A stretch of 64,000 bases of DNA, from NCBI RefSeq assembly GCF_026210795.1, contig NC_089447.1, forward strand, positions 994,501 through 1,058,500, in the 5' to 3' direction. Shown here piece after piece: positions 31,545 through 60,356 of the stretch (position 1 is the stretch's first letter; the number at the start of each line of letters is the position of its first letter). This DNA is from Rhizophagus irregularis (lineage: Eukaryota > Glomeromycota > Glomeromycetes > Glomerales > Glomeraceae). The notes under the pieces were generated by a model, which was given only the letters and a program-made list of their open reading frames with translations, was not told the DNA's origin and did not search any database. The position numbers and the translations under genes were made by a program.

Positions 31545-32429
31545 ATGAGTCAAAATTATAATATCTCTAGTAATTGTCAAAATGAAGGATATGAACCTTT
31601 TATCACGGGTAATAATTATTCCGTTGGTTTACAACAAGCGAGGGATGTAATTCAAGAGCCATTTCTAAATAATCAAGTTCATTATTCTCATTGTAATGTC
31701 GTAAATCCTCCTAATAATTGCTTTTACACGTCTGATGATAACAATTTATCAACGCAACATGAAGATGTTAATGCTATTTCAGATCATGATAAACAACAAC
31801 CCGTATCCCCACATACTCCTCACGCTCAACTTTCTTTTACACAATCCTCGCAATTTTATCCGCAAATCTCTGCTCCTAAACAACGGTTAATCTATAATAA
31901 TAATGTTATTACCCGACAAGTTCCTCAATTTTCGCATGATGGTTTACATGATTCATCAACCACAAATAACTCTCAAATGAATTGTACCGAATATACTGAA
32001 CTCTTAAAGATTGAAATTTCTGGAATTGAAATTGTCGTTAGGCAAAAGACTTTACCAAGATTGAATCAAAGTCATTGGGAGACGCAACAACAACAACAAC
32101 GGGATGAACAACCTCCAGTAAATTTATCAAATCGTACTGAAAGATCTCAGAATCATAGAATGCATCCTTATAATATTCCTAATGAACAAAATCATAGAAC
32201 TATTAACAGAAATAATTCTAATGTTATTTTTCGACAACAACGTCATCAATATTATTCTATGCGTCAACAAAAAAATAATGTTTCCGAAATTGATCGAACT
32301 TCCGTTAATGAAAATACTAATAATATTAATATTACGCAGAATACTCTCGTCAATCAATCCGCTGTCTTTACACGACAACAAACAAATGCTTTTGAGGAAT
32401 GTAATAATCTTATTAATCAAAATTCGTAA
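31545..32429 (+). CDS. Asn/Gln-rich family protein, member A
   Basis: A single-exon ORF of 294 residues starting M-S-Q-N-Y-N-I-S-S-N. It is mostly low-complexity Asn, Gln and Ser with no known domain. At about 150-167 it has a short non-repetitive core, L-L-K-I-E-I-S-G-I-E-I-V-V-R-Q-K-T, matching the core of three other genes in this window (34835, 56485 and 59817). It is the most diverged member and lacks their shared C-terminal G-Y-N-N-x-x-G. No signal peptide or membrane segment is visible. The Asn/Gln content is prion-like, so assembly or condensate formation is possible but unproven. Frames at 32127-32450 and 32182-32442 are shadows. Confidence 0.65.
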   Translation: MSQNYNISSNCQNEGYEPFITGNNYSVGLQQARDVIQEPFLNNQVHYSHCNVVNPPNNCFYTSDDNNLSTQHEDVNAISDHDKQQPVSPHTPHAQLSFTQSSQFYPQISAPKQRLIYNNNVITRQVPQFSHDGLHDSSTTNNSQMNCTEYTELLKIEISGIEIVVRQKTLPRLNQSHWETQQQQQRDEQPPVNLSNRTERSQNHRMHPYNIPNEQNHRTINRNNSNVIFRQQRHQYYSMRQQKNNVSEIDRTSVNENTNNINITQNTLVNQSAVFTRQQTNAFEECNNLINQNS

Positions 32430-33899
32430 AATTATATTATGAAATATCAATCAATTAATATCACATTCTTTTTAATAATATCATTGATTACATTATTATG
32501 ATAAATATGAATATGTATATACAGATCATATAATTCCTTGAAATCTTTGATTTATTTTTTATAAAAATTTGTCAATATATGATTTTATTATATAAGTCTT
32601 TATTAAAAAATTTCAACTTTTATTATTATTATTGTTAACTATTCATTATTACTGTAATTATTTATATTTATTTTATGTTGTAAGCAAATAAGTTTTAAAT
32701 TGATATGTATTGTACTAGCGGAATTTCGTAATTCCTTAAGGAGTTCAAAAAATAAAGAAGTATATTACTATTAATACAGATAATTTAATTTTTTATTGGT
32801 AAAGGATCGTCAAGAAAAACTTTATTTGATGGATCTAGATTTCTTATAATGAAAACTTCCTAACAGCTTAATCATTCCATTATAAATAATTTAACTTCTT
32901 GAATACAAATGCTAATCATTTTCCATTACATTTCTAAATGCATTTACATCCTTCTATTGCATTGTAGTACGAAAACTTATATAATTATGTGGACTGAAAA
33001 TTTTGGATCCAGTCGTAACAATGGAAATTTTGCAATTCAAAAAAAATCCCCTTTGGACTCTGAGTTATTATATAATAAATAATTAGCATGTGTTTTATTT
33101 ATTATAATTAATTGGTTAAGAAATTGCTTATTTACATAAAATTAAATTTTGTTTACATCCAAAATATTTACTTTTTTTTTTGTGGGTTTTTTTTTGTTTC
33201 CCGGAGTAAAATCGGAGGTCCATTATTGTACATATAAGTGTAAATTTATTTTTATCCCCTGCTTAGTGTCCTTCCACAAATATTCCTTTTTGGATGACCC
33301 CTAAAAAAAACAACAAATTGTTGATTGATCGCATAATCTGTCTCAGCTATGCATACATCATAACTATATTGAATCACTTTTTACGTTTGGTATTAATTCA
33401 TATATTGAATATATACAGTATATTGAAAAGATTGTAATACTTCGATTAATCCCGTCATATGATCCAATTTATCTTTTCGGAAAATATATTTCTCCATTTA
33501 TACTCTATCATTAATTGAATGACACAAACTTGGATTTTGTGATTTATTTTGGTTAGATGTATGATATAAATTAAAAAATATATATATTTAAAGATTTCTT
33601 AATAAATTGCATGTTTTTGTAAATCAAAAATTTTCTGTGATGATCGTCAAAATTGATCACGTAATCCAAACTTCGATTTTTTTTTCGAATACACGTGATT
33701 AGTATATCGTCACCTGTCAACTATTTCATAGGATATTTTAATGAGGATGTTCATATTTCATAAATTTATAGCTGTTATGCCTGATGACCCCGGAAGACAA
33801 TTAACTTAACGATTTTCTTTTGTATCGCGCACTAACATGGATTCTTGCCTTCCAGCGTCAATAGATTTTTCTTTTTAGTCATTTTTGATAAATGTAAAA
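32430..33899. other. AT-rich intergenic region
   Basis: I see no gene. GTACTAGCGGAATTTCGTAA at about 32713 shares its centre with a coding stretch of the family member at 59817 and may be a tiny relic. The right part leads into a segment duplicated at 55.6 kb. Confidence 0.4.
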
Positions 33900-34633
33900 T
33901 AATCGAAACATTTGAAAAAATTGTTATTATTTGAAAAATCCTTATATTAGTAGTATTGGAAGCATCGGAAGCAGTATCTAATCTTCCTCCAGTAGTACAA
34001 AAATTTGATCGGAAGCTTCCAATACACAGATCAATATTTCCAAATCTTCCAATTCAATAAAAAGTCATTGGATGCCTTCTAAGCACGGCACTAAAACACA
34101 TTTTACCTATAGTTTTGAGAACTTTTGTTCAAGGCCCAATATAATAACTTTTGAAAAAAACATAGTCAAACACCATTTTAACTGTAAGTATAAATTGTAA
34201 AATAAAAAAAAAACAATAGAACTTCCATATTCTGCACACAATGACAATAATCTGTGATCCGTACTCTTTTTAACTGCAAAAAAAAATTCAAAATTTCAGA
34301 ATTAAAGCAATTTTTCACAAAGTGCTAAATTGAGTGCTGATTTATCTGCCAAATCTGCAATCTTTTTACTGTTTTAGAATAATAGTTGATAATATTTCTG
34401 ATATTTTCTTTTCTACATCTTTTTATGTTCAAAATAAAAATAAAACTAAATACTAGAGTAAGTTCAGAAAAAGCAATATGGTTTTAACAGCTTTTATAGT
34501 TAACACTGGAATTTAATATAAATAAAAATAAGCGGTTATATAAAACAAAAAAATATTTAAAAATATGGAAAATAACTAAATATTATTTTATTCAGTTTAA
34601 TAAAGTAAGCAATAAAAAAAAAACATACATATA

Positions 34634-34736
34634 AAGTCAACTCCCTCTAAGTGCACCCCCTTGGGTCCATAATGAAAATTTCATTTAGAGAGGGTGTGCA
34701 TTTAAAGAGAGAAATTTTATGTGAGTGCACTTAGAG
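34634..34736. mobile_element. Short MITE absent from the paralogous copy
   Basis: About 103 bases starting AAGTCAACTCCCTCTAAGTG (TA at 34632-34633) and ending GTGCACTTAGAG with TA at 34737-34738. The left end matches the CAGTCAACTCCCTCTA terminus of the larger elements at 37362 and 54211; the right terminus is shortened. The paralogous position near 56395 runs straight through poly-A and GTATGTA without it, so the copies act as filled and empty sites. It lies about 100 bases 3' of the family gene. Confidence 0.55.
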
Positions 34737-34834
34737 TACATATATTCTGCTATTGTAAATTCTTGTAACAACTCTTTCTAGTGATAACGACAATCAATTT
34801 ATCTAATTAAGATACAGTATATTATTCAAAAAAT

Positions 34835-35410
34835 TTAACCTTGGAAGTTATTATATCCAAATTGTTGATGATTTTGATATTGCAAATTATCCGTATTCAT
34901 GTTATTTACGGAATTTACGTGGCTATTACTAACGAAATTTCCGTTAATATAGTTTTGATTTTGATTTACTAATTGTGATGGCATGATCGCAACTGGAGAG
35001 TAAGAATTCATAGAAGATTGATGTTGCGCATTCAAATTGTTTAAATTCATAACTTGGTTAGACTTTGGTCTAACAATAATTTCAAATCCAGGAATTTCGA
35101 ATTTAAAGATATTACATTGATTTACTTGTGGCTGAAAAGAATCGAAAGTCGTCGAATTCGGTAAGTTAACAAAATGATTTGAAACTGGTTGTCCATTACT
35201 ATTATAATTATTACTTTGTGATACATGGGGACAACATTGCGGAACTGAACTGACAGTATTAAGAGAATTTATAAAAGGTACTTGGGAAATATTATTACTT
35301 GTCATGGAATGAGAATCAGTATGATTGTAAAAAGTATCTAAATTATTACGACTATCCGCTTGTAAATCAGTTAATCGTAAATTACTAGAAAAATTTGGAT
35401 TTTGACTCAT
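34835..35410 (-). CDS. Asn/Gln-rich family protein, member B
   Basis: A single-exon ORF of 191 residues on the minus strand. It starts M-S-Q-N-P-N-F-S-S-N-L-R-L-T-D-L-Q-A and ends Q-F-G-Y-N-N-F-Q-G. The conserved core N-I-F-K-F-E-I-P-G-F-E-I-I-V-R-P-K-S-N-Q lies at about 101-120. Around it is Asn/Ser/Gln-rich sequence with a C-C-P-H motif near 60. It is about 80% like member C (56485) over the whole length. Insertions and deletions between them fall between codons, which suggests selection for an open frame. There is no domain I know, no membrane segment and no signal peptide. The short leader TTTCAAAATGAGTCAAAAT is shared with C. Confidence 0.75.
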   Translation of the reverse strand: MSQNPNFSSNLRLTDLQADSRNNLDTFYNHTDSHSMTSNNISQVPFINSLNTVSSVPQCCPHVSQSNNYNSNGQPVSNHFVNLPNSTTFDSFQPQVNQCNIFKFEIPGFEIIVRPKSNQVMNLNNLNAQHQSSMNSYSPVAIMPSQLVNQNQNYINGNFVSNSHVNSVNNMNTDNLQYQNHQQFGYNNFQG

Positions 35411-37361
35411 TTTGAAAGATTTATTTTAATATTTTTGAGAGATGCGAAGATTGCGACGGCCTTTTATAATAATGACGTTCACTTCGTCAGATTATATTTC
35501 TTTTTTTTGGGATTGGTTTTATTTTATTCTATTTATTTATTTTGGTTATGATTGTTATGATGTGTTAAAATATTTTACGTTAAAAAATAAAAATAACGTG
35601 TCAATTATATTAATTAGCACTTCTCGCAAAGAAACAAATTGTTTTTAAAAAAAATCAAATTCCTTTTTTTATTTTTTTTCGAGTATTTCGAGTAGGGCAT
35701 TTTATAGATATTTAGTCAAGCTTTTTGTTGTACAGATAAAAAATCCCCCCCTTCCATATGGAAAAAATTCGGATATATATATATATATATTATTAATAAG
35801 TAAAGTATGTTGATCATTCAAATTATCTTTGTTGTAATGTGTGACAGGTTACGCCACTTAAAAAAAAAAACGTTAAGTCAAATGTTACACCCTTTGTCGT
35901 TCTAAGTAGGTTTGTTTTTGTTTTTGAAAAAGAAAAGAAAATTATCTGTGGCGCATGTGCCGATCATTTTGTCCCAGTAGCAAAAAAAATTCACTCACGT
36001 GATTTGTGCCATTTTTAATTGGCGCTCACATGTATCATAACAGATAATGATTATCTTGGAAAAAAACAACATATTAATCATTTTATTACTTTTACAATAC
36101 ACTTGAAAATAACTCTTTTCAGTTTTCACTTTATTAAATTTAATTTTAATAAATAAATAATATTATTGATATTTGGAGTTAAGTATACTGTTGCTAATTA
36201 TTCTTAAAAATTAATATTTAAGTAGTGTGTTCTATAAGAATCAAAATTTTTCCTCTAAGATTTAATTTAATTCACACTTGACTCAAATTCAATTAAGGTT
36301 ACTGGAAAAATTAGGGGTATTAGCAAATTGGTGAAATGCTAAAATGGCGAAACTTTGCCAAAACTATATGAAAGTCTTATTAAAAAGTTGGTGAAACTCT
36401 GGAAAAAAGCGAAACCTGACAAAATTTATTATAAATGCTGAAACTGCCAAAACCTTGCCAAAACTATAATAAAACTATAGTAAAATTTTGGAGAAACTAA
36501 TTGTAGAATTTTGGAGAGGTTTAGCAGGTAACCTTAAACTCAATTAAACTTCAAAAAATATTATCACAGAATCTAGTGATCTGATTTTAATAATTTTTTT
36601 AATCAATAACTCTTATTATTCCGATTAAAATAAAAAAAAATGAACTGTTAGATTAAAAGTTATTCATAAAAAATGTTTTTACCTTTTAGGATTAGGGTTT
36701 AATAAGACAATTCCAATGAGCTATATTTCATCCTTTTCTGATCACTGAGTGTCTGAGTCAAAAGTTAGCAAACTGCTTGATTGGTAACTGATTAATATCT
36801 GGTTTTTCACCTTTTGACCTGTGCAAGCCAATCAAATCTTATTTAAAAAAAATTCAAGCTTTACAGGTCTTATCAAACCTTATTGATTAATTAATTAATT
36901 ATAATCTTAATTAATAGAATTTAATAAAAGCTTGTAAAAACTTATCTTTTTAGATAAAATTTATTTAGCTTAAAATGGTTCATAAAGAACACTAGTAAAA
37001 TTTATTAAAGAATTTTATTTAATTTATTATTAGTCTTATAAATTTTTTAGGCTTAAATTCCAAAATGTAATCTTTATAAGTAAAAATAAAGTTATGGACA
37101 AAAAAAAAAGAGTAATCTAAAATGCAAAAAGCATTTTTATCTATAAAATCATTAAAATAATTACTAGTATATAATTTAATTTTATGTATTATGATAAAAA
37201 GGTATTTGAAAATTATACTTTTAAGGTAAACTTAATATAGCAGTTATACATGCCACCCAAATTATTTTGAGCTGCCATAATTATAAGTAAAATCCTAAAT
37301 TCAATTATGATATCCCAAATTATTTTAGCACTTTATATAGTAAATTAAACTAAATGAATTA
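35411..37361. other. AT-rich intergenic region
   Basis: Holds the MITE at 36293-36537. About 55 bases at 36716-36770 (from CCAATGAGCTATATTTCATC) resemble a motif in the 147-base units of the pogo-like elements and in the foldback at 46206. I see no gene. Confidence 0.45.
36293..36537. mobile_element. MITE with TTAAGGTTAC termini and internal repeats
   Basis: Perfect 10-base terminal inverted repeats TTAAGGTTAC (36293-36302) and GTAACCTTAA (36528-36537) bound 245 bases. The interior is made of diverged repeats of GCCAAAACTATA and TTGGTGAAAC/TTGGAGAAAC. No target duplication is clear and there is no coding capacity. Confidence 0.5.
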
Positions 37362-37397
37362 CAGTCAACTCTCTTTATAGTCACACATTTGGGACAG

Positions 37398-37415
37398 TCC
37401 ATATTTGGTGATTAT
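37398..37415. repeat. LINE target-site duplication, left copy
   Basis: TCCATATTTGGTGATTAT, identical to 45412-45429. The intact element at 54211-55171 has this sequence once (reverse strand, about 55116), which confirms that it is duplicated target DNA. Confidence 0.9.
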
Positions 37416-37886
37416 GAGCAAACAGTCTTATGACTTTATCTTTTATTATTAAATTTAAACGAAAAGTACAATAAACAGATCGAACAATATTACAAATATC
37501 AAATATAGAAAATAAACATAAAAAATAAAAAGAACTAGCTTCACGATTCATACAAGTAAAGAAATCTAAACAAAATAAAATTAAGTAAAGAAAAACTAAA
37601 CTATTACAGAAACGCATACCCCATCTTTACCCGAAGGCCAGTGTGAGTCAACTATCCAGCATGTCCTAAGATCCAATCCGTTACCAAAAAGAGATCCTAA
37701 GTAGAGGCTGAACTGTTAAGCGGCGCCAAAAATCCAAATGCGAAATCCAAGATCCCCCACGGATTATAGAAGGAAACCCAAGAACCCAGGAATCCAAGGA
37801 AGCTGTCGCCAAGGAAGGTGTCGAAGAGTCAAGAGGAATGTTAGAGGAAGGTCGAAGAATAGAAGAAGGCCCAAGAGCTGACGATT

Positions 37887-39547: not shown

Positions 39548-42500
39548 CTAATATCTATAAAAGAAATAGAAGGCTACAGTATGAGAATTAGGAATTCTAA
39601 ATTGTTGTAAAATAAAAAAAGAAGGTGAATTAGGAATAACAATAAGATTGAACAAATAATTAAACCAAGCAGGCGCAGATCCTTTGTTCGATACTCGTTT
39701 AAGAAAGCGTAAATCTTTCCATGAGAGAAGTCGAGAGCCACACGGTGTAATCAATTGAGCAAGAAAATGAGTGCAGAAATTTATCCGAACATTTTTCATG
39801 GAAGTATATAAATCTTTTGGTAAAATAGACCGAAGTGGAATCGCCGGACGTAAATCTTTCCTCGGAGGTCGGAACAGTAAAGACCACGTGATATTTAAAC
39901 GAGAAGAGAACAATAAAGAATTAAATAAAGAATGTGTTCGCAAAGAAAAGGTGTGGGACCATGGTTCCAGGTCAATAATAGAGGGGCAGACATCACAGTC
40001 CAAAAAACCTTGGAGATAAGTAATCATATAATTAGCAAAGAGCTTATATGAAGGGTGAGAAAAAATTTTCTCTGCTGAAGCCACATGAGATGACAGAAAA
40101 CGACCAAACGCATGTTGAAGAGAGAAAGGCAACAGTGTGAAGAGTGTGGAAAGAGGAGTGACTGAGGCCAAACCTGCCTTCTGACGAATAAGAGAAAGCA
40201 TTGGAGAAACCATGCGATTAATGGTGGATTCTGCAAATAATGTGGTTTGTAGGCGAAATTCTAGCCGCGGAAGTAGGACAACGTTATAAAGATAAGCTAT
40301 ATGTTGTGCTAAAAGTTTTTTAGGACTGAGTAGAGCGGCCATGTCTTTGACCATGGAAACAATTTGGTTATGAACGAAACGAGAAGAAGCCGAAAGGTTA
40401 AACCAAACACCTAAAAACCGAAAAGATGCAGATAAGGCTAACGCCTTTAAAGTAAGGGTATGAATCGTATTTAAAGAAGATGGGAATAGATCAAATACAA
40501 TAGTTTGAGAAAATTGTTCAGAAGAAAGAAGGATATATTTTGCTGAATTTGCTTGAGTATTATTTAAAGTGTAAAATTCAGCAGTAATGGAAAGGCGATC
40601 TTCAATTCCTTGTTTAGATGAAGCAATCAAAGTAGAGTCATCCATAAATGTAATATGTGAAATAGGAAGATTATGTTGTTCATATTCAATTGGAGAATAA
40701 TCCAATAATGCAGAAGATTTCAAAATAAAAGGATCACAGGCTTCTCGATTAAGTGTGGTAAGTAATGGATCCAAGTATATAACCCATAATAGTGGAGAGA
40801 TGATTTCACCTTGGTCAATACCAATTCTAACTCTATATCCAGAAGTATCACCATGATGTGTAATAATTTTATTATTACGCCTTGTAAAAAGGTTAATGAT
40901 AAATTTGATCAATAAAGACGGAATATGCAGACGGATTAAAGCCAGTCTAAGCATGTTCAAATCAATTGAATCAAAGGCCTTAGAAATGTCCTGAGAAACA
41001 ACCCATAGTTCTTGGTCATCGCTTTTATCAAAGCGTCGTTGATGAATAATAGCATCAAGCATCTTAATAGGAATGTCGGTGGAGCCGCCTGGTAATCCGG
41101 CAAAATTACCACCTTGGAGCACTTGATTGTCAGCCAGGATTTTTGATAGTCGAGTTGTAACGACCTTAACCACACATTTGCGTACTGTTTCCAATAGAGC
41201 GATAGGTCGCGTATTCTTCAATTGGGCGTCAAATTCATGAGGCTTTGGAATGGGATAAACAAGCGCTTCACGCCAATCGGCAGGGATATCTCCATGAATG
41301 AGACAAGCATTGGCTAATACAAGGGACAAATCGAAAGTTTCTCCAGTTAAATGTTTGAGCATCTCATAAGAGATCTTGGAAGGACCAGAGGCTTTATTAT
41401 TAGGCATAGAATTGAGAGTGTTTTTCCATTCATCGGCCAGAATAGGAGACATAACCAAGTTATATAAGGACGAATCAATATCTGGAAGAGGAGTATACGC
41501 TCGTTGCCATCGTGGAGGAAATGAATCCGTAGAAGAATACTGGACCAAAGGAGGAGTGACAACCGATCGGAAGTGTTTAATAGCAGCTTGTTTGATATCT
41601 GAAGGATCAGTAAGTAATGTGAGTTTGGAGTCAATAACAACCAAAACTCTATCAAGGACAATAGAACGATGTTCCACTGATAGGGCTGAAGAAATAAAAG
41701 AGCCCGGGGATGTAGAGAAATGTTCATCTCTAAGAGCAGTATAATATTCAATGGAATCTACACGATGCTGATGAAATTGTGTGGAAAGATAAGCTGAGAC
41801 CAAAGCTTTTTGTGAACGTAAAAATTTAACAAAAGTAGGAAGCGGTGTTGTACTATAAGAAGGTATAGTATAATCTGTTAAAAGAGACTTAAGGAGGATT
41901 AATTGGGTTGGTAAGGAATTAATCATTTGTGAAATTTGAGCAGGACGACTAGGCCTAGATGTGGTCAATTTAAACAATAATCTATCCAAGAATTTGTTGA
42001 CAGCAATAAGCATGGTAAGTTCAGGAGGATATTTATGGTGATGAGTATTGGATACATGTTGGAATGGTAGAGAATCAATGGCACCACCAAGAATAGAACG
42101 TTTAAGAGCGTGCCAAAGTTTGTCCAATGAAAGAACTGAAAGTGAAGATACTGAAGGATGGTGTGTGGTCAAGTATAACTCAAGACGTGAGTTTACTTCA
42201 TTGGAAAATTTGTCCCAAGTGTCATCTTTCAAATTTTTGTAAAGAAAGATGGTGCGTTGTTCGCTTTTCTGCTTTAATCGAGCTTTGGATAAAATAGCGA
42301 AACATGAGCTAAAATCAAAGGCCGTTAAAAGTACACGGTGATCAGTAAATTGATTATCATTCAGCTTAGGACAAGTTTCAACTTGAGAAAAAAGACCAGG
42401 AGCAGGGAATCCAGGGGATGACCAGATATAATCAAGTCTTGAAGAACCATTCTGGTGATAAAAGGTAGGACTAGGACCTAAAGTTGATGAAATATGGGAT

Positions 42501-43606
42501 TGGTGATCTGTAAAATATCGAGAAGAGAGTGATCGTAAAATTTTCAAATGATGTTGAGGAAGATGTGAATGTGAAATTTCATCTGCATTAAAATCACCAA
42601 GGACGACTACGTGATAGTTATTAGAACGGGCTTTATCAAGCCATAAATTAAGTTGTGCAAAAATAGCATCTCGTTCTTTATAATGAATAGAGTGATAGGG
42701 AGGAATATAAACAGAAATAATAGAAATTTTTGTCTGATGAAAAAAAAGATCTAATTTTAAAAGACGACCTTTCCAGGGATCAATCTTCTGAACATGTTTA
42801 TGTAAAGGATGACGAAGTAAAAGACCAACACCATCATGTGGTCGTGAATTAGAAGGGGAAGGAGCCCAATAGGACTTGAAATTATATAAGGAATGTTCAT
42901 GTTGATAAATAAATTTAGCACCAGAAGAAGTAAGGCGAGTATCGTTTAAAGATAAAACGCTAAAGGAAGAATGCAAAAAATAATTTAACAAATGCAATTG
43001 TCGGACGGGGGAACACAAACCATTAACATTGATTTGTCCAAAGTTAATAAGAGGAGAAGAAAAAGAAGGAGAAGAAAAATTATTAAAACTATTATTATTA
43101 AGTATCGCACTATTAGGGGGGTGAAATCCCTGTGATACACCCGATACAGATTGGTGTTCAATCATTGGAAGGGGAGGGTTTTGAGGGAGAGAAGGAGTCC
43201 AATTTTTCCATAATCGAACCAAGTTGGGCAGAAAGATTCTTTTGTGTATTAGTGACATTAAAAATTTCCGATTGCAAACGAGAAGTGTCAGCACGGGGGC
43301 AGCATTAGTAGGTCGGGAGATAGGTAAAGGGACGTGTCTTCTTGATAGAACAGAGTTAGGATCCAGAGCTGAGAAGGAAGCATCAGGGGAAACGTCCATA
43401 AGAGAAGAAGAGGTATTGGGAGGAAGATTGATTCCAGAATTCATGTCTCGGGTTGGAGCATCATCCCATCCATTATCATAAGAATGAGTATAATTTTCAT
43501 GATCATCCTGAGGCGAATGCAATTCAGAGTCGCCAGGGGCGTCATAATTCATCATTGATTCCAGCTCAGAGAGTCTATATTCATGAGCCGTAATAGTGTC
43601 ATTCAT
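39548..43606 (-). CDS. LINE ORF2: AP endonuclease and reverse transcriptase
   Basis: An uninterrupted 1352-codon frame. Residues about 190-430 form an exonuclease-endonuclease-phosphatase fold: I-N-V-N-G-L at the start, V-V-V-L-G-D-F-N-A-D in the middle, then R-L-D-Y-I-W-S-S and F-T-D-H-R-V-L. This enzyme nicks target DNA to prime reverse transcription. The reverse transcriptase lies at about 720-1010: V-Y-P-I-P-K-P, R-P-I-A-L-L-E, the first catalytic strand S-Q-D-I-S-K-A-F-D-S-I, G-I-D-Q-G-E-I-I-S-P-L-L, and the active-site turn F-M-D-D (usually F/Y-A-D-D). A thumb region follows. The frame ends at 39548, where the RNase H region continues out of frame. The start is the ATG at 43606, 63 bases after ORF1 ends. 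Confidence 0.9.
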   Translation of the reverse strand: MNDTITAHEYRLSELESMMNYDAPGDSELHSPQDDHENYTHSYDNGWDDAPTRDMNSGINLPPNTSSSLMDVSPDASFSALDPNSVLSRRHVPLPISRPTNAAPVLTLLVCNRKFLMSLIHKRIFLPNLVRLWKNWTPSLPQNPPLPMIEHQSVSGVSQGFHPPNSAILNNNSFNNFSSPSFSSPLINFGQINVNGLCSPVRQLHLLNYFLHSSFSVLSLNDTRLTSSGAKFIYQHEHSLYNFKSYWAPSPSNSRPHDGVGLLLRHPLHKHVQKIDPWKGRLLKLDLFFHQTKISIISVYIPPYHSIHYKERDAIFAQLNLWLDKARSNNYHVVVLGDFNADEISHSHLPQHHLKILRSLSSRYFTDHQSHISSTLGPSPTFYHQNGSSRLDYIWSSPGFPAPGLFSQVETCPKLNDNQFTDHRVLLTAFDFSSCFAILSKARLKQKSEQRTIFLYKNLKDDTWDKFSNEVNSRLELYLTTHHPSVSSLSVLSLDKLWHALKRSILGGAIDSLPFQHVSNTHHHKYPPELTMLIAVNKFLDRLLFKLTTSRPSRPAQISQMINSLPTQLILLKSLLTDYTIPSYSTTPLPTFVKFLRSQKALVSAYLSTQFHQHRVDSIEYYTALRDEHFSTSPGSFISSALSVEHRSIVLDRVLVVIDSKLTLLTDPSDIKQAAIKHFRSVVTPPLVQYSSTDSFPPRWQRAYTPLPDIDSSLYNLVMSPILADEWKNTLNSMPNNKASGPSKISYEMLKHLTGETFDLSLVLANACLIHGDIPADWREALVYPIPKPHEFDAQLKNTRPIALLETVRKCVVKVVTTRLSKILADNQVLQGGNFAGLPGGSTDIPIKMLDAIIHQRRFDKSDDQELWVVSQDISKAFDSIDLNMLRLALIRLHIPSLLIKFIINLFTRRNNKIITHHGDTSGYRVRIGIDQGEIISPLLWVIYLDPLLTTLNREACDPFILKSSALLDYSPIEYEQHNLPISHITFMDDSTLIASSKQGIEDRLSITAEFYTLNNTQANSAKYILLSSEQFSQTIVFDLFPSSLNTIHTLTLKALALSASFRFLGVWFNLSASSRFVHNQIVSMVKDMAALLSPKKLLAQHIAYLYNVVLLPRLEFRLQTTLFAESTINRMVSPMLSLIRQKAGLASVTPLSTLFTLLPFSLQHAFGRFLSSHVASAEKIFSHPSYKLFANYMITYLQGFLDCDVCPSIIDLEPWSHTFSLRTHSLFNSLLFSSRLNITWSLLFRPPRKDLRPAIPLRSILPKDLYTSMKNVRINFCTHFLAQLITPCGSRLLSWKDLRFLKRVSNKGSAPAWFNYLFNLIVIPNSPSFFILQQFRIPNSHTVAFYFFYRY

Positions 43607-43668
43607 CCAAGAGACTGTTTCCTCTAGAGTGTGGAGGGTAGTAGCGATCTCTTTAATTTTGCCTTTAA

Positions 43669-45275
43669 TTATGAAGCAACATGTTGAGGAAGCGTAGGGG
43701 CAGGATTGTTAGATGAAGAAGTAGGGTGTATAGAACTGATAGGATGAGGTCTGTGTGGAGGTTGGGCAGAACCAGAAGAATTATCATTGTCCCTGGAATT
43801 ATTATTATTATTGTTGGTTCTGTTATTACTTCGTGAAGTGTTGGGACGAGAAGTGTTATTAATATTGTTGTTGTTGTTGGAACGGAATGAAGAGGAATTA
43901 TTATTGCGGGATCTAGAGTTGGAACGCGATCTTGAACGGGAATTGGAATTGTCACGTGATTGGCGCGAATCCTGACGACCACGTCTAGGTCTAGCATTGA
44001 AACGAGAATAAAGCTTGTTGAGGCGATCGTCCACTTTCCGTGTGGGACGAGGATTGCATACAGAGGGAGAACATCCAGGACGCCCACAAACATGGCATAA
44101 AGTTTGTGCTTCATTGGGAGGATGCCATGTTAATCCTTTGCCGCGGAAAGCCACGGTCATTTCTTTGGCAGCTTCAAGAGATTCGAACGAGGAGAAATTC
44201 AAATACACATAGGGTTTAGGCTTGTATGAGCTGATAGACAAAGGAACGTTAAGAGCCTTAGCGTTAACTTGAGTAGCAATTTCTATCAGATCAGCTTCTT
44301 TAATATTTTTGGGGATGCCGGCAAGGATAGCAACATGTTCTCTGCGGCTATCGCGTTGGGTTTTCGAATAAGACGCCGGGCAGACGCGTAAAGAATTGCA
44401 CCAAGGCAGATGATCGCCCAAATATCATGAAATTGGGTAATTGCGTCCGCGGAGGAAAACTGGATATGTCCATTGTAGTAATGCTTTCGAGGAGTAAGTT
44501 TGCACTTGATTACAGTGCCATATCGGGAAAAGGCCTGACGGACTTGAGTCTCGGTAAGGAAAAGTGGGATATCAGTAACAAATAAAGACTTCGCTTCGTC
44601 ATTGAGTTTGGCATCTGCAGGGGAATAATGAATAAAGGCTAAATTGAGAAGATCTACACGTGGTGAACTGACACAATCGGTATAATCGTGTTGATCATTA
44701 AAGAAGACAAGGATTTTTTTATTATCGCCTGATCTATCGCAGCGTGCACGGGCGCCATAAGAGGAATAGCGGGAGAGTGAGCAATCGCTTCGTCACGTGG
44801 AGCGATTGGTGGTGAATTTAGTTGTGAACGCGTCAGGCGCGTCGCGTAAATATGCCGCAGCATAATAACGAGAAGGAGCAGACTTAATAGCGGCAGCATT
44901 ACCATCGGGAGATGGTCGCCGTTCAGGGACATCAAAGGCGACAGTTTTGCCTTTACCACTGGTGTTAGAGGGAGCATGGATAGAAGCGTCAACAGTTTCA
45001 ACAGGAGTGGTAGTATTTTGAGGAGATGTAAGCACTTGGACTTTGTTGATAGGAAGACCTGAGGGAGCGGTAGAAATAAGGTTGGGAGCCGAAGCAGAAG
45101 GTGAAGTTATATCGACATTCGCAGCGTCATCGGAGACAACGCGTGAACGTTTGTTAGGCGCGCCAGCGGTAGTCGTGGGAGACAAAGGTCGGTCTCCAGA
45201 AGGAGTAGAAGTAATAGGACGCGGTGGCGGTGGAATATCCGGGTTAATAACAGAAGGAGCTGGAGGTGTAGTCAT
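43669..45275 (-). CDS. LINE ORF1: RRM and Cys/His-finger nucleic-acid-binding protein, frame-broken
   Basis: Three overlapping frames reconstruct ORF1. 45275-44793 starts M-T-T-P-P-A-P and is Pro/Ser/Thr-rich and disordered. The next frame, about 44790-44430, carries an RRM-like stretch (S-L-F-V-T-D-I-P-L-F-L, then Y-G-T-V-I-K-C-K-L and G-H-I-Q-F). 44421-43669 carries a second RRM-like stretch (V-A-I-L-A-G-I-P, Y-V-Y-L-N-F-S-S-F), a finger C-H-V-C-G-R-P-G-C-S-P-S-V-C, then a long Arg/Ser/Asn-rich tail. Such ORF1 proteins coat the element RNA. Two frame shifts separate the pieces; no extra nonsense codons are evident within them. Confidence 0.75.
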
Positions 45276-48498: not shown

Positions 48499-51128
48499 TC
48501 ACATTGGAATTCTTCTTTTTGACAATTCTAATACACTCTTTAATCTTCTTTTAGAAGGAGCTCCCCGAATTTTAGTAACATTAGGATCAGTAATCTGATC
48601 AATTAAATCTTTTTGTAATGAAATTATGTTAGCATTCTGTGCAGCTCTTTCTATACCATTAATTTCTTCTAAATTATCATCATCACCAACTTCTATACTT
48701 CTTTCATGTTTTGATGCAATAAATTCTTTCAATAACCGAATTAATTCACAATCACTATTAGTTTCTAAAGCAATATTAACAGCTGTTTTTGCTATTGAAA
48801 ATGCTATACCAAATCGATTTCTTTGAGAAGTATTTTGCTGATGAATACTTTTATTATCATCTAATCCTTGAAATTGTCGCATGTTTTGAAGTATAAAATT
48901 AATTTGATAAGATGATGATGATGAAGAATTATCATTTGATTCTATTGCAGTAAGAATTGGCAAATTTTCAACGTTACCCTCTAAGTTTGTTAAAATACTA
49001 TCTTTATACCATCTATTTGGTATAATACTAATATGAAACTTCGCTATACCTGAATATAACATAACATGCCAAAAATGTCGACAAATTATACCTTTAGTTA
49101 CACTTTCCATACATGTACAAAGATGACTGCCATCATCTAATAATATTACTAAATTTTCACGTTTTGAAAGTCCACCTACACGACGTATTCTCCATGTTTC
49201 AATAATATTTATAGAATCAATACCATTTAAAAAAGATTGTAATATTATTTGTGGTTCATCAACTACATCTTCTATAAAATAATTATCAACAGTATCAGAT
49301 TCTAAAACCTATATATTATATATAATAATATAATAAATAAACTTAATTAACAATAATAAAATACTATGTAATTCAATAAATAAATTTAATACTTACATTA
49401 TCAAATGATAAAACTAGTTGACCTTCATAAGTAAGTGATTGAGAAATTTGAAATCTTTGCCAGGATAATACAAGAGGCGTTAAAAAATGATTGAGAATTG
49501 CATCAATATTAGAGAAAAATTGTGAAGCTAAATGTGGTAATCCAACCGTTGTTTGTTGTGCCTTAAGGTCAACTAATTTACAATATTGAGATTCATCATC
49601 ATGTCTTTTATTGATTGCTTTTTCAACATCACAAAGAGAACTAGTACTATTTACTGCCTTTTTAATAATACCATTAAATGATTCAACGCTTTGAGTACTT
49701 TGGATACCCGCATTGAATTGAAATGGTGAATACGATTTGGCCCAACTAGAACGATTAGAATATAATACTTTAGTTATATATGAACAGCTTTCTGGAAATG
49801 TACTCATCATAACTTTCCAATGTTGTTCAAATAACTCAACACTTAATGTATTTCTACATAAATAAAATGCCTTACTAAAAGATGGAAATGCTTCACCTAA
49901 TTTATTTTTAAGATGTTTGATAATATTTTGCCAAATATGAAAAAGGCAATAAAAGTGAGGTGTTGTTGGAAAAACATGAGATGCAGCATTAATTAAACCA
50001 GGTTCTGAATCCATCTAAAATGCTTTTGGAGTTGTTTTATCAGTTGCTTCCATTAAACATTTCAAAATCCAAATATATGTTGACGCCATCTCATCTTCTA
50101 CCAAAGCATTAGCTACATTTCGAAATTTTCCATAATTATCTCTCACCATAAAGACACTCAAATACATATTATATTTGTTAGTTTTACAGGTATTATCATT
50201 TAACACCACATCATGGAATCTTTGATACAAATCCTGTTGAAATGGTGACATCCAAAAAATACCAGATAAACGTCTTTCATTACCAGAATGCCGAACAAAT
50301 ACCTTCCAATTTGAATCTTCAGTCATTTTTTCAAAAAGAACATTAAGTAATAAACCAGAATCAAGGTTTTCATCTTTATTATTTCCATGTAACTTGTAAA
50401 TTGAATTATAGACGTCCTGTTTGTGAAAAACATGTTCTGGGTATTTTTTTTTAAGAATTTCTAATTGTACAATAGGCGCAACTTTGCAATCTGTAAAAAA
50501 TGCTAAGTCTTGCATCATGTCATCATTAAACTGTCTATATCTAGCATTAAGATGAGCTATTTGGGCTGAGTTTAATTCATGATTATGGGAATCTATTAAT
50601 GTTGTACATCTTATACGTTGTTCAGTTTTTGGTAATTTAAAATTACAATGCCATTCACAATTGGTTTTGTTAGAGTTACGCAAATGATGTACATTTTGAT
50701 TAATTATTTTTCAACCTTCATAATTACCATTTAAGGAACAACGAAATGATTTATGACGAATAATAGAATGATCATTTATGTCTTTATTATTTCGATATAT
50801 TTGATAACCAAATCCTCTTTCCAAACAGTAATTATACATAAATTTATCAACAGACATCCAGTCATCAAACATATCTCCAATATGAAGATTATATTGATAA
50901 ATAGGAAAGTTTGAATTATTATTAGAATAGTTAAAAGTATTTGTATTATCAATAACTGGGTTTATAGGTTCTACTTCTAGTTCAATAAAAACATTATCGT
51001 TAGGAGATATAATAGTATTTCATATGCCATGCTTTACACCACTTTCAATAAAAAAGCCGGGTCGTTGGTGTAAAAACATCTTCAATATCTTTTAGAAAAT
51101 TTATAAATGATTCCCAGTCCAATTTCAT
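48499..51128 (-). pseudogene. MULE transposase (FAR1-like), disabled
   Basis: The minus strand encodes the FAR1/MULE order. First is a C2HC (WRKY-GCM1-like) DNA-binding finger: S-F-R-C-S, then C-E-W-H-C-N-F and S-H-N-H-E-L (about 50560-50760). Next is the MULE DDE domain with V-V-L-N-D-N-T, D-S-E-P-G-L-I-N-A, C-L-F-H-I-W-Q-N-I and S-V-E-S-F-N-G-I-I. A SWIM finger, C-T-C-M-E-S then G-I-I-C-R-H-F-W-H, lies at 49100-49060. A GTAAGT...ATAG intron spans about 49398-49309. Stops break the frame near 51060, at 50713-50711 (TGA) and at 50017-50015 (TAG, just before the DSEP motif), and the first 70 codons are out of frame. It encoded a cut-and-paste transposase; this copy cannot. The C-terminal 203 codons are still open. 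Confidence 0.8.
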
Positions 51129-54046: not shown

Positions 54047-54140
54047 TAGGTCCTGTGGTAACTTAACTAACAAAGTAGGGCAATTGCTAAGAGTAATCTG
54101 TTTCACATGTGATCTACCTACTGAGTTAAATAACCACCTG
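54047..54140 (-). other. tRNA-like relic (possible SINE head or tRNA pseudogene)
   Basis: On the minus strand, TTTAACTCAGTAGGTAGATC resembles a tRNA D arm with its A box (compare TAGCTCAGTNGGTAGAGC). AAACAGATTAC then follows where an anticodon arm would be. The T arm is unrecognisable (TTAGCAATTGCCC in place of GGTTCGAATCCC). Not a functional tRNA. Confidence 0.3.
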
Positions 54141-54210
54141 ATAGTGCACACATAGGTAATTTTATATTATGACGAGATTAATAATATTAGATGGGATTTA
54201 GTTTTATATA

Positions 54211-55171: not shown

Positions 55172-55173
55172 TA

Positions 55174-56484: not shown

Positions 56485-57081
56485 TTAACCGTGGAAGTTA
56501 TTGCATCCAAGAATATTCTGTTGTTGATGAATTTGACATTGCAAATTATCCGTATTCATGTTATTTACAAAATTTACATGACTCTTATTAACGAAATTTC
56601 CGTTAATATAGTTTTGATTTTGATCTACTAATTGTGATGGTATGGTCGCAACTGGAGAGTAAGAATTCATAGAAGATTGATGATTTTGCGTATTCAAATT
56701 GTTTAAATTCATAATTTGATTAGACTTTGGTCTAACAATAATTTCAAATCCAGGAATTTCGAATTTAAAAATATTACATTGATTTACATGTTGTTGAAAA
56801 GGATCAAAAGTCGTCGAATTCGGTGAGTTAATAAAATAATTTGAAGCTAGTTGTCCATTAGTATTATAATTATTACTTTGCGATACATGAGGACAACATT
56901 GCGGAATTGAACTGACAGGATTAAGAGAATTTACAAAAGGTGTTTGAGAAATATTATTATTTGTCATGGAATGAGAATTAGTTTGATCGTAGAAATTATT
57001 TAAATTATTACGACTATCCGCATGTAAATCAGTTAATTGTAAATTACTAGAAAAATTGAGATTTTGATGATTTTGACTCAT
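56485..57081 (-). CDS. Asn/Gln-rich family protein, member C
   Basis: A single-exon ORF of 198 residues starting M-S-Q-N-H-Q-N-L-N-F-S-S-N. It is the closest relative of member B, with the same N-terminal Q-L-T-D-L-H-A-D-S-R-N-N-L-N, C-C-P-H-V-S-Q-S-N-N-Y, core N-I-F-K-F-E-I-P-G-F-E-I-I-V-R-P-K-S-N-Q and terminal G-C-N-N-F-H-G. Differences from B are mostly single residues plus small in-frame insertions in Asn/Gln tracts, so the reading frame has been kept while the flanks drifted. No known domain, membrane segment or signal peptide. The context AAAATGAGTCAAAAT matches B. Confidence 0.75.
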   Translation of the reverse strand: MSQNHQNLNFSSNLQLTDLHADSRNNLNNFYDQTNSHSMTNNNISQTPFVNSLNPVSSIPQCCPHVSQSNNYNTNGQLASNYFINSPNSTTFDPFQQHVNQCNIFKFEIPGFEIIVRPKSNQIMNLNNLNTQNHQSSMNSYSPVATIPSQLVDQNQNYINGNFVNKSHVNFVNNMNTDNLQCQIHQQQNILGCNNFHG

Positions 57082-57528
57082 TTTGAATATTTTATCTTAA
57101 AATATATTTTAGATATGTATTGTATATATTTTTTGTTGAAATAAAGATGATTGCGATGGTCTTGCTTTTGATCCTTTTATTATTAAAAAAAAATATATAT
57201 ACATATCAACTGCAGTGAAATCAAAACTTTAGAACTTGATGCAAAATTTAAATTGTGAACATCTGTTTGATCAATCAGTATATCGACCATGACAAAGCAT
57301 AATATACAAATAAACAAGATACAAAGAAATATGTATTTAATAATGCATCAAAATGTAATAAATAATACTCAAAAATGTATAGTGGTTAACTGGTTAAATT
57401 ACACGTTAAATTACACTGATTCATTTAGTCTTTACTCTTTATAATTCGAATGTTATTTAAATTTACTATATCAGGATTAAAAAAACAAGTGTAAACAAAT
57501 TTTTTCTTCGGAAATGTTTATTTTTCAA
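57082..57528. other. Promoter-side flank of member C
   Basis: AT-rich. The first 20-30 bases belong to the duplication. I see no gene in it. Confidence 0.5.
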
Positions 57529-57545
57529 AACCAATGTCAGAAAAT

Positions 57546-58270
57546 TTTTTTATTTTTATTTTTAGAAAACAGAAAAGCGAAACGGTAGATTCAATTACGC
57601 GGACAACATAAAATGAGTCTATATGTAATTCTATCACTACACGTCAAGCCACCCCGAAGCGTGACGAATTCTGTCCAGAGATATAGGGTGGCCCAACATA
57701 GTTGGGACCACCCTATATCTACACCTCTAACCCTCCCCTAAGGGGGTAATGCATTGGTCGTCTATGCTCCCAGTCTACACTACCTCAGGTTAGAGTCGAC
57801 CGCAAAGTATTCACAGCTCTTCAAATTGGTTGACCACTAAGTGGTTGGTAGTCCCGCCCCTACCTATTATATCCCCTAAGGGCCTTTTTCGGGTACCAAG
57901 ATGTTTTAACAAGAGCTATATGAACCTTATGGCAATCCGAATATCCTGAATTTACAGCTCAGATGAGACTCACAGGCTTGTGCAGAGTGGTAGCACCTAC
58001 CAGCTCCAGACGTTCGGTCGAGTCAGTGACCAGTCCTAGGACTCGCCATACCAGTCTACCAATGATCACATCAACCACCTCACCATCGGTTGGCATCATT
58101 TCAGCTCCCCCTAAGGGTACGGGATCTTCAACGCAGTTGGTGGCTGCGCACGCAGTAATATTCATAGCAAGGATCGTTGGCTGGACGATCTGAACCTGCG
58201 TCCTATTGATTGGTCAGATCAATAGGGAGTGTAGACGCCTTAGGCCATTACACTAGGGACGCCAATCCTT
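57546..58270 (-). mobile_element. tRNA-derived SINE-like retroposon
   Basis: A 725-base, relatively GC-rich element on the minus strand, bounded by a perfect 17-base target duplication AACCAATGTCAGAAAAT (57529-57545 and 58271-58287). Its 5' end (58270 downward) reads like a tRNA: A box TAGTGTAATGG at 58255-58245 and a weak B box GGTTCAGATC at 58196-58187, separated by a CCTATTGAT/ATCAATAGG hairpin. The 3' end is the A-rich CTAAAAATAAAAATAAAAAA typical of retroposons. The body has three CCCTAAGGG-type palindromes and a hairpin GATATAGGGTGG/CCACCCTATATC at about 57680-57720. It would be transcribed by RNA polymerase III and mobilised by a LINE. The 68-76-codon frames within it are not genes. 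Confidence 0.75.
58187..58255 (-). promoter_or_regulatory. Internal RNA polymerase III promoter (A and B boxes)
   Basis: The A box TAGTGTAATGG (58255-58245) fits TRGYNNARNGG well. The B box GGTTCAGATC (58196-58187) matches the first five positions of GGTTCGANTCC and departs afterwards. The spacing of about 50 bases is within the tRNA range. Confidence 0.5.
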
Positions 58271-58287
58271 AACCAATGTCAGAAAAT

Positions 58288-59816
58288 GCCGTACGCATAA
58301 AAGATAATGTATTGAAAAGCTAATCATGTGATTTTCCGATGATCCGCTATTTGACTTAACTTGCATAGATAAGAAATTTTAAGTATTATAACACAAAGAT
58401 AATTAATATTTTTGGATCAATCAAAAAATAAAAATAAGTTATACAAATGTTTATATATAGTATATATTTTTTTAAAAAAAAAGCTACAAAAAGAGCAGAA
58501 ACTTTAATTATAATACAGAAATATGTAAGATCATTTAATAATGAAAGATCATTTAAAAAAAAATCCTACCAGAAAAAAAATTAAAAATTTATCAGTGGTA
58601 AATTTTTTTTATTCGGAATTCACCAATAATAAGTTGAAATGTGTGGGTGTGACCATGACTTTGAATTTTATGCATCATTATGTCCTAATTTTTAATATAT
58701 CAGATATGCACATTTATTATACATAAATAAACACAAATTTTGTATATGATATCTCGGGATTGTTTATTAAGGAAACCTTTTTTTAGTGGGTGAAATCCTA
58801 TTATCGAATAATACTTGTTAATTAATATTACCACATGAAGAATTTAACCTTTAATATTATTAATCAACCACTTCAACGATAATTAAACTATAGCAATCTT
58901 GTAATCCGAAAATATTAAACTACCGTCATTTATGCTACTTATTCTCACCTCAACGATAATTAACTATAAGGGATCGAATATATCAATCTACCGTCATGTA
59001 TGCTACTTATGTTATAATCTATAACTGAAGTAACTCGTAGATTAAAAAGATTGACAAATGTGATTATGCGTAGAATACGTATGATCTAAATATAATTCGT
59101 ATTTACAATTTGCATTATTTCTCTAAAGTTTTTTTCTGCATCATTTCTACGTATTATTTTTGTGTATATATTTACAAAATTCATGGCTAGTTTATACATA
59201 AATTACTAGATAAGTTATTGGCGACATTTCTAAAACACGTTATATTTCGAATCATATGAAAATATGTTGATTGCGCATATTTGTTTACAACTTATACAGA
59301 TTTTAAACTTTTTACCATATAAAAAGAAGTTCAGGGATTGAAAATTCAAAATCAAAGTTTTCTTCAAGCGTACATTGGTTTGGTAAAGTAAGTGAATAAA
59401 ATTTAGAGTTCGGTTTACACCGAAATAATGCGTGATCATCATAAAAATAAGTAGTGTGATATTTATAATGATAAATCCTGCGATGTGTGGACAGTATTAG
59501 GAGCCGGCGTATGGAATCGATGTAGAATATGCTTGTATATATCAGTTTAATCACAAATTTTTCTGGAAAATAAAAGATTTATCTTTAAAAATGAAATTGT
59601 AAAATGTATGTATTTTATTAATTATAGTAACAATTGATTTTTTATTTGTTTAAAGATAATTGTAAAATGAATGGTATCAGGTATTACTAAGTAAAAAATA
59701 TGTATTTTAATTAATTATAGTAACACAAAAAAAAAATTACTATAAATGGTAATATATATGGTTAAATTATATGTTTTAAATAAAATAAAATTAAATATCA
59801 TAATTTGTTATTATAT
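58288..59816. other. AT-rich intergenic region
   Basis: Contains a diverged direct repeat of about 65-75 bases (58871-58942 and 58948-59010, both ending CTACCGTCATNTATGCTACT). A second short direct repeat, around TTAATTATAGTAACA, lies at 59616 and 59711. I see no gene. Confidence 0.5.
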
Positions 59817-60356
59817 TTAACCTTGATGGTTATTATACCCAAGAGAATTTTGTTGTTGAAATTGATATTGAGAGTTATTCATAATAAAAGATTGATTATT
59901 ATTATTATTATAAATATTTTGCATATTCATAGTATTCATGTTATTTACAGGATTTACATAACTTCCACTAGCGGAATTTCCATCAACATAATTTTGATTA
60001 GCCGCAACGGAAGAGTAAGAATTCATTGAAGGCATGTTTAAATTATTTAAATTGTTTAAATTGTTTAAATTCATAAATTGATTAACCTTTGGTCTAATAA
60101 CAATTTCAAAACCAGGAATTTCGAATATAAAGATATTACTTCGATTTAATTGTGGTTGAAAAGTTGTATCCGGTAAGTTAACATTTGGATAGTATCCATT
60201 AGTATTATTAATATTATCATGAAAATGATTTTGCAAAGTATTAAAAGCATTCATGTTAAGAGAATCAAAATTGTAAAAAGGGTTTAAATTGTCTTGACCA
60301 CCCGCTTGTAAATCAGCTAATTGGGGGTTATGAGAGAAATTGTGATTTTGATTCAT
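59817..60356 (-). CDS. Asn/Gln-rich family protein, member D
   Basis: A single-exon ORF of 179 residues starting M-N-Q-N-H-N-F-S-H-N-P-Q-L-A-D-L-Q-A. The core N-I-F-I-F-E-I-P-G-F-E-I-V-I-R-P-K-V-N-Q is followed by F-M-N-L-N-N and a short L-N-N repeat, then P-S-M-N-S-Y-S-S-V-A as in B and C. It ends L-G-Y-N-N-H-Q-G. Compared with B and C it lacks the C-C-P-H stretch and has its own Asn tract (I-Y-N-N-N-N-N-Q). It is intermediate between A and the B/C pair. No known domain, membrane segment or signal peptide. Confidence 0.75.
   Translation of the reverse strand: MNQNHNFSHNPQLADLQAGGQDNLNPFYNFDSLNMNAFNTLQNHFHDNINNTNGYYPNVNLPDTTFQPQLNRSNIFIFEIPGFEIVIRPKVNQFMNLNNLNNLNNLNMPSMNSYSSVAANQNYVDGNSASGSYVNPVNNMNTMNMQNIYNNNNNQSFIMNNSQYQFQQQNSLGYNNHQG

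What the first reader, a model, noticed from the sequence alone, without database searches (positions are those of the whole stretch)
31545..60356. Clustered Asn/Gln-rich gene family with a short conserved core
Four intact single-exon genes (31545, 34835, 56485, 59817) share the start M-[SN]-Q-N, a core near F-E-I-P-G-F-E-I-[IV]-[VI]-R-P-K, and in three of them a terminal G-[YC]-N-N-x-x-G. The rest is low-complexity Asn/Gln/Ser sequence that changes by in-frame insertions. I know no described family with this core. Keeping the frame while the flanks decay points to function; the composition suggests prion-like or condensate-forming proteins with a small binding motif. Function is unknown.
Basis: partly seen in the sequence, partly recalled or inferred. 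Interest (0 to 1): 0.75.

Follow-up and report, generated by a model that had tools for sequence, protein, structure and literature searches.

The report
Fungal family of prion-like hairpin-motif proteins
A root-symbiotic fungus carries dozens of small, apparently selected genes for asparagine- and glutamine-rich, probably unstructured proteins built around one short conserved motif that looks like a sticky hairpin; I found no description of the family, and what it does is not yet known.

Summary
The window lies in the Rhizophagus irregularis DAOM197198 assembly. Three genes (34835, 56485, 59817) carry FEIPGFEI(I/V)(V/I)RPK; the fourth (31545) is a diverged, probable member. Searches give at least 87 loci with the core or a remnant, on 14 of 32 contigs, mainly C20, C22 and C6; 50 intact single-exon ORFs were analysed. 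Consensus: EIFxF(D/E)IPG(F/I/S/Y)K(I/V)I(I/V)I(P/T), one, two or four copies per protein.

Selection acts on the protein: pooled dN/dS 0.42-0.60, core 0.10-0.17 in three groups but 0.74 in the window group; other frames give higher values in three of four groups; indels are multiples of three in 70 of 74 in CDS, 62 of 176 in flanks. TATAAAA precedes 33 of 50 genes, 5.9 expected, mostly C20 and C22.

No convincing relative in Pfam, PDB sequences, bacterial or viral contigs. Best reading: prion-like proteins whose core is a beta-hairpin sticker for self-association. Functional genes: well supported; mechanism: inferred (about 0.4). Folding, expression and other fungi were not testable.

The parts
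31545..32429 (+). diverged, probable family member, 294 aa, core KIEISGIEIVVRQK at 32007-32048
   Evidence: relative on C26 (L066)
34835..35410 (-). family member, 191 aa, core KFEIPGFEIIVRPK at 35063-35104, end GYNNFQG
35462..35468 (-). TATAAAA, starting 58 bp upstream of the ATG of the 34835 gene
   Evidence: position -58
56485..57081 (-). family member, 198 aa, core KFEIPGFEIIVRPK at 56725-56766, end GCNNFHG
59817..60356 (-). family member, 179 aa, core IFEIPGFEIVIRPK at 60087-60128, end GYNNHQG
60654..60682 (-). 29-bp match (93% identical to part of the 59817 gene), perhaps a remnant of a decayed copy just upstream of that gene
   Evidence: weak, single short match

Best explanation
A lineage-expanded family of small single-exon genes, many with a TATA box, encoding soluble, probably disordered, Asn/Gln/Ser/Thr/Pro-rich proteins that carry one, two or four copies of a roughly 22-residue core. 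The core reads as a beta-hairpin or beta-arch: strand EIFxF(D/E)I, turn P-G, strand (F/I/S)K(I/V)I(I/V)I. The most likely mechanism is sticker-and-spacer: the core, the most conserved and usually the stickiest segment, pairs with other cores, of its own kind or of other members, so that the proteins assemble into condensate- or amyloid-like bodies inside the fungus; core number and spacer length tune assembly. SHOWN by sequence: family, arrays, purifying selection on frame and (outside the window group) on the core, TATA boxes in the C20 and C22 groups, several core numbers per protein, no signal peptide by hydropathy. INFERRED: disorder, hairpin fold, homotypic assembly, intracellular site, regulated expression. 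Functional coding genes: about 0.93; homotypic assembly as the mechanism: about 0.4 (the confidence given here).
For: Genome-wide family. dN/dS all/non-core/core: C20 group 0.43/0.47/0.13 (127 pairs), C22 group 0.42/0.48/0.17 (37), C6 group 0.48/0.53/0.10 (21). True frame against the two others: 0.36 against 0.96/0.79; 0.40 against 0.75/1.03; 0.48 against 0.64/0.92. Indels in-frame 70 of 74 in CDS, 62 of 176 in flanks, 16 disjoint pairs. TATAAAA in 33 of 50 at -160 to -60, Markov mean 5.9, maximum 11. Among 71 distinct pattern-selected cores the turn is I70, P69, G68. The strongest 9-mer aggregation window overlaps a core in 46 of 50. Two cores in C22 members, each constrained in seven proteins (0.19 and 0.07); four in L070; two in L086. 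Low K and R, almost no Trp.
Against: Only 2 of 50 proteins have a hot spot stronger than 95% of their own shuffles, so the aggregation signal is one of position, not of height. Proline in the centre is unusual for an amyloid core (general knowledge). Nothing about folding, assembly or expression was measured. All 50 ORFs were chosen for being intact, which favours in-frame indels, and cores were picked by patterns, which raises apparent conservation and lowers core dN. In the window group the core dN/dS is 0.74, and its one close pair gives 0.63 in the true frame against 0.98 and 0.56. None of the four window genes is among the 33 with a TATA box in the tested span.
Confidence: 0.4

Rival explanations
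1. The core is a docking peptide (short linear motif) that adds a beta-hairpin to the groove of a folded partner; the N/Q-rich rest is a flexible tether. Core duplication raises avidity.
For: Short, near-invariant core in low-complexity sequence; the consistent difference between core 1 and core 2 in seven C22 proteins is kept under purifying selection. The species has very large kinase, BTB/POZ, Kelch-like and Sel1-like families that could supply partners (PMC8647823, passages and section 7). TRP-like channel genes lie near family loci slightly more than expected: 23 of 87 within 50 kb against 8.7, p 0.03; 31 within 100 kb against 15.0, p 0.04; 8 within 20 kb against 3.7, p 0.18; uncorrected, and the C20 array holds several.
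Against: No partner identified. HMG-box genes show no closeness (0 of 87 within 50 kb). About 45 kb of DNA between array members gave only an APH-like kinase, a TRP-like channel, a DUF3504 ORF and transposon-like pieces among the ORFs looked at.
Confidence: 0.3
2. The core is a nuclear export or other trafficking signal and the proteins are small regulators (for example co-activators) with prion-like activation regions.
For: A loose export-signal pattern overlaps the core in 44 of 50; N/Q/S/T-rich low-charge regions are common in transcription co-regulators (recalled).
Against: The pattern is unspecific; the residue after P-G, one of its key positions, is F, S, I, Y or V; no basic cluster in 50 and no DNA-binding Pfam domain in 22 members.
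Confidence: 0.12
3. Neutral or selfish repeats: AT-rich low-complexity ORFs carried by transposons, without function.
For: Transposon-like ORFs lie between the genes (by eye); many loci are decayed; orphan genes of this species tend to lie closer to transposons than core genes (PMC8647823, section 7).
Against: dN/dS well under 1 and frame-specific in three groups, in-frame indels, TATA boxes, flanks of most pairs much less alike than the CDS.
Confidence: 0.05
4. Secreted symbiosis effectors or surface proteins.
For: Lineage-expanded, low-complexity, fast-changing, like SP7-like effectors and AGLs.
Against: Hydropathy in the first 35 residues reaches 1.6 in 2 of 50, and one of these has its core there; a 19-residue stretch reaches 1.6 in 1 of 50. 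Unconventional secretion is not excluded; no dedicated signal-peptide predictor was run.
Confidence: 0.08

Closest known systems
[quoted passage not shown]
   Same: Short (about 21-22 residue) motif, in two copies near the C-terminus (here in the C22 group), in sequence expected to be disordered; motif read as strand-turn-strand (PMC4518210, abstract and passages)
   Different: No HeLo or other Pfam domain and no HET-s match; core hits lie in open frames of at most 300 aa; no NLR noticed in the neighbourhoods sampled
Yeast-type prion-like domains (Q/N-rich)
   Same: N+Q 25.6%, low K and R, almost no Trp
   Different: Carry a near-invariant hydrophobic IPG core under purifying selection; stand alone without a folded domain
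SP7-like effectors of arbuscular mycorrhizal fungi
   Same: Expanded low-complexity family in the same species; condensate localisation reported for SP7-like proteins (PMC11333574, passages)
   Different: SP7-like proteins have a signal peptide, in several cases a nuclear localisation signal, and hydrophilic repeats; in this family no signal peptide or basic cluster was seen
AGLs, small secreted disordered proteins of Glomeromycotina
   Same: Small disordered families of the same lineage; amyloid-like repeats among the predicted properties (PMC8786786, abstract and outline)
   Different: AGLs are secreted and rich in P/G (or G/N) tandem repeats; here N/Q/S-rich with a single core type
Orphan ('Class B') genes of R. 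irregularis, high-copy group
   Same: No known domain, high copy number, often in transposon-rich surroundings (PMC8647823, section 7)
   Different: That is a bin of unrelated genes; this is one defined family with a motif

Membership tests
HET-s / HRAM amyloid signalling motif | sequence match to HET-s-type motif | tested here: not met
   No HET-s family among Pfam hits of 22 members (E up to 0.1) or of 7 double-core segments (E up to 1); in PDB sequences only a SWI3 chain at E 0.25 and 0.64. That Pfam and PDB hold HET-s entries is recalled
HET-s / HRAM amyloid signalling motif | motif also at the N-terminus of an NLR, usually next door | tested here: inconclusive
   92 core hits, all in open frames of 27-264 aa; 50 hits of a second core query, longest frame 300 aa; no NLR noticed in about 45 kb of array DNA, but only selected ORFs were scanned with Pfam
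HET-s / HRAM amyloid signalling motif | forms beta-solenoid amyloid | not testable with these tools
   structure prediction switched off; needs experiment
Prion-like (Q/N-rich) proteins | Q/N-rich, charge-poor composition beyond what AT-rich DNA gives | tested here: met
   N 15.9, Q 9.7, K 1.2, R 1.2% in 50 proteins. Of the other window ORFs of 150 aa or more, two are also N-rich (18.4%, 22.8%) but with R 14.1% or K 5.6%; two F-box-like ones have N 5.5-7.3 and K 8.9-9.7%
Prion-like (Q/N-rich) proteins | self-propagating assembly | not testable with these tools
   needs experiment
SP7-like effectors | N-terminal signal peptide | tested here: not met
   hydropathy of first 35 aa: 2 of 50 at or above 1.6, one of them with its core there; no dedicated predictor available
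HMG-box (MATA) family | HMG box in the same protein | tested here: not met
   no HMG_box hit in 22 members, E up to 0.1

The most novel reading that the evidence does not exclude
An NLR-independent, prion-like recognition or memory system of arbuscular mycorrhizal fungi: dozens of hairpin cores that assemble only with matching cores, so that the set expressed marks nuclei or strains (self/non-self in a shared cytoplasm) or stores a heritable state. Fast-changing arrays, one to four cores per protein, and two conserved but different cores in the C22 group fit this; nothing here tests it.
Probability: 0.07. Interest if true: 0.9.

Novelty: new variant of a known kind. Interest (0 to 1): 0.57.

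Why it matters
Arbuscular mycorrhizal fungi carry many genes without known domains. This defines one such family by a motif that can be searched, shows by sequence alone that its proteins are under selection, and gives a testable biochemical idea (a hairpin sticker in a prion-like chain). If the cores self-assemble with specificity, it would be a large natural set of paralogous assembly motifs in one cytoplasm shared by many nuclei, where identity and memory are open questions.

Tried and rejected
Relatives elsewhere: one scan each of bacterial/archaeal genomes and of viral contigs with a 22-member alignment gave 99 and 71 pattern matches and no confirmed relative. Other fungi are not held, so restriction to this lineage is untested. 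Weak Pfam hits were set aside as low-complexity or chance: five families, each in 1 of 22 members, best Pox_G7 0.0015 and DUF3863 0.004 (DUF3863 is below its cut-off), and DUF4796_N in 4 of 7 double-core segments at best E 0.058. The PDB hit SWI3 (E 0.25 and 0.64) was not followed.

Partner genes: an HMG-box fragment beside one member (L059) and HMG genes at C20 2.51-2.83 Mb suggested a link; against 61 of the 150 listed HMG boxes (those on the 14 family contigs) 0 of 87 loci lie within 50 kb. A TRP-like channel gene inside the C20 array led to a search (142 matches, 72 of 190 candidates scored); 43 merged loci on the 14 contigs gave the weak, uncorrected closeness told under the docking rival, the only such test run, with two gene sets at three distances.

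Dropped or weak: the charge table at the end was wrongly indexed and is not used. dN/dS pairs are not independent; one search kept 188 pairs with dS under 0.8 and more than 80 codons, pairs with at least 65% identity. The C20, C22 and C6 groups each include one member from C1, C2 or C27. The 50 ORFs needed a start before the core and at least 110 aa; shorter clean forms were left out, L066 was added by hand, and the starts of L057 and L058 are uncertain. L086 was found later and is in no statistic except. Of 86 merged loci two (C22:315562, C6:3317900) were not read as DNA; some loci are only remnants. No tree was built.

Papers: none held contains any of six core strings. Searches for prion-like, asparagine-rich, orphan, tandem and low-complexity terms showed no paper on the family among the 20, 20, 10 and 12 listed of 98, 214, 1,588 and 48. 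Searches were for context. Seen: PMC10234402 passages and sections 18-19; PMC8647823 passages and section 7; PMC4518210, PMC9815663, PMC11333574 passages; PMC8786786 abstract and outline. Supplements were not open to me, so gene tables could name family members unseen.
Full report
Where the window comes from. The window is C19:994501-1058500 of a genome of 146,748,485 bases in 32 contigs. The published R. irregularis DAOM197198 assembly has 32 scaffolds, 146,773,001 bp and scaffold N50 5,085,394 (PMC10234402, passages); contig C13 here is exactly 5,085,394 bases. The identification is therefore firm, though the totals differ by 24,516 bases.

The four ORFs. All are as described. Genes 34835 and 56485 are 82% identical proteins, 59817 is 60% identical to 34835, and 31545 only 31% in a gapped alignment. 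31545 resembles the family by its start and its diverged core, and has a relative on C26 with the same variant core. That relative was its only other genome match, at E 1.19, so membership is likely but not proven by score.

The family. tblastn with successive members gave 9, 78, 7, 66, 50, 38 and 2 matches at E up to 10. A core-only query gave 92 matches, all with E below 0.2 and in open frames of 27-264 residues; a second one gave 50, longest frame 300. So the core was not seen in a larger open frame; exons were read one by one. Merging with twelve places from other calls gives 86 loci on 14 of 32 contigs: C20 31, C22 20, C6 14, C19 5, C13 4, and 1-2 on nine others. One more on C13 (1,325,077) came (read). 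These are lower bounds, and some are remnants only. DNA was read for all but two of the 86 (window). Fifty ORFs met the intact criterion of a start before the core and at least 110 aa. The others are short forms, broken frames or fragments.

Anatomy. Lengths are 115-294 aa. Among 71 distinct cores, which were picked by a pattern and so are partly conserved by choice, the turn is I70, P69, G68; F, L or I stand at the two key positions before it and mostly I or V at the four after the charged residue; that residue is Lys in 60 and Glu in 8. The C19 form FEIPGFEIIVRPK is thus a minority variant. The last core lies mostly 28 residues from the end in C20 members, 5 in C22 members and 35-52 in C6 members. 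Core number varies: C22 members have two about 30 residues apart; L070 and L071 show four about 25 apart; L013 has two 113 apart; L086 has two about 72 apart (counted by hand). Different spacings in different subfamilies suggest that the core was duplicated several times independently (inference). In seven C22 proteins the two cores differ from each other consistently (FEIPGIKIIVIPT against FDIPGSKVIIITL) and each is constrained (dN/dS 0.19 and 0.07).

Selection. Nei-Gojobori dN/dS, pooled over pairs that passed the filters: C19 0.60 (3 pairs), C20 group 0.43 (127), C22 group 0.42 (37), C6 group 0.48 (21). Outside the core 0.59, 0.47, 0.48, 0.53; in the core 0.74, 0.13, 0.17, 0.10. The C19 core value rests on few changes and does not show constraint. 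Reading the same alignments in the other two frames gives 0.96/0.79 (C20), 0.75/1.03 (C22), 0.64/0.92 (C6) against 0.36, 0.40, 0.48 in the true frame; the single C19 pair gives 0.63 against 0.98/0.56. In 16 disjoint nearest pairs, gaps inside coding sequence are multiples of three in 70 of 74, in 300-bp flanks in 62 of 176 (Fisher p 7e-20); the intact-ORF criterion favours this result. Coding identity is 0.85-0.97 while flanks run from 0.46 to 1.00. Together these show translated, selected proteins in the C20, C22 and C6 groups; for the window genes the case rests on kinship with them.

Gene signals. TATAAAA peaks 60-120 bp before the ATG and occurs at -160 to -60 in 33 of 50 genes; first-order Markov resamples give a mean of 5.9 and a maximum of 11 of 50, and the downstream control 3. 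By group: C20 18 of 18, C22 8 of 9, all others 7 of 23. Paralogues are not independent. None of the four window genes is among the 33; 34835 has the box at -58. AATAAA lies within 300 bp downstream in 44 of 50 (upstream 31); AAUAAA is the main poly(A) signal of this fungus (PMC10234402, section 18).

Protein character. N 15.9, Q 9.7, S 11.6, T 8.4, P 7.6, K 1.2, R 1.2%, W 4 of 8,710 residues. AT-rich DNA alone would raise Lys as well as Asn (reasoning). Two F-box-like window ORFs (by eye; no Pfam match) have N 5.5-7.3 and K 8.9-9.7%; two other window ORFs are as N-rich (18.4 and 22.8%) but carry R 14.1% or K 5.6%. No signal peptide by hydropathy and no basic cluster. The strongest aggregation window overlaps the core in 46 of 50, but only 2 of 50 exceed 95% of their own shuffles.

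Neighbours. No partner was identified. HMG-box genes are not close (0 of 87 within 50 kb). TRP-like channel genes are somewhat close (23 of 87 within 50 kb against 8.7 by circular shifts, p 0.03, uncorrected; p 0.18 at 20 kb), largely in C20; this is a lead, not a result.

Mechanism. A sticky, conserved strand-turn-strand in a soluble spacer, present in one, two or four copies, is best explained as a homotypic sticker (about 0.4). A docking peptide for a folded partner is nearly as likely (about 0.3). Proline at the turn fits a hairpin or arch and argues against a plain steric-zipper amyloid.

Comparison. Resemblance to HET-s-type motifs is in architecture only: no sequence match, no effector domain, and no NLR noticed in the limited neighbourhood sampled. 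SP7-like effectors and AGLs are disordered families of the same lineage, but secreted. I therefore call it a new variant of a known kind: an expanded low-complexity family, with a core motif for which I found no description (and the searches named in Tried and rejected).

Noticed in passing
57650-58290, minus strand: G+C-richer element whose start reads like a tRNA-derived SINE (A-box-like TAGTGTAATGGCC, B-box-like GGTTCAGATCG; by eye). ARAGORN and Rfam (gathering) report nothing in the window.
   Followed up: partly
39548-45275, minus strand: Non-LTR retrotransposon-like region: 1352-aa ORF with an F-M-D-D motif and endonuclease-like part (by eye), plus N/R-rich and P/T-rich ORFs. A Pfam scan failed.
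   Followed up: no
48499-50518, minus strand: Three ORFs that look like pieces of a MULE-type transposase (by eye) between family members.
   Followed up: no
L082 (C20:3268100-3277500): TRP-like ion-channel gene inside the C20 array; weak Ion_trans hit just below cut-off. A search gave 142 matches on many contigs; 23 of 87 family loci lie within 50 kb of one, p 0.03 uncorrected.
   Followed up: partly
L059:1274-1501, minus strand: Truncated HMG-box ORF next to a C6 family member (HMG_box E 0.0026, below cut-off); no general closeness of HMG boxes to the family.
   Followed up: yes
62180-62722, plus strand: ORF with an N-terminal hydrophobic segment, a long Asn run, and an IIVTGHAIYLGG stretch; no Pfam match at E 0.001, perhaps the first exon of a larger gene.
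   Followed up: partly
9819-11192, plus strand: Ankyrin-repeat protein gene (Pfam).
   Followed up: yes
L013 (C14:628000-631000), 1220-1702, minus strand: Family member with an internal duplication: two cores and two YNNxQG-type ends in one 160-aa ORF.
   Followed up: partly
L012, L014, L036, L058 and others: A second, weaker shared stretch (like YEQQPMFSFIN) before the core in several members (by eye); not analysed.
   Followed up: no
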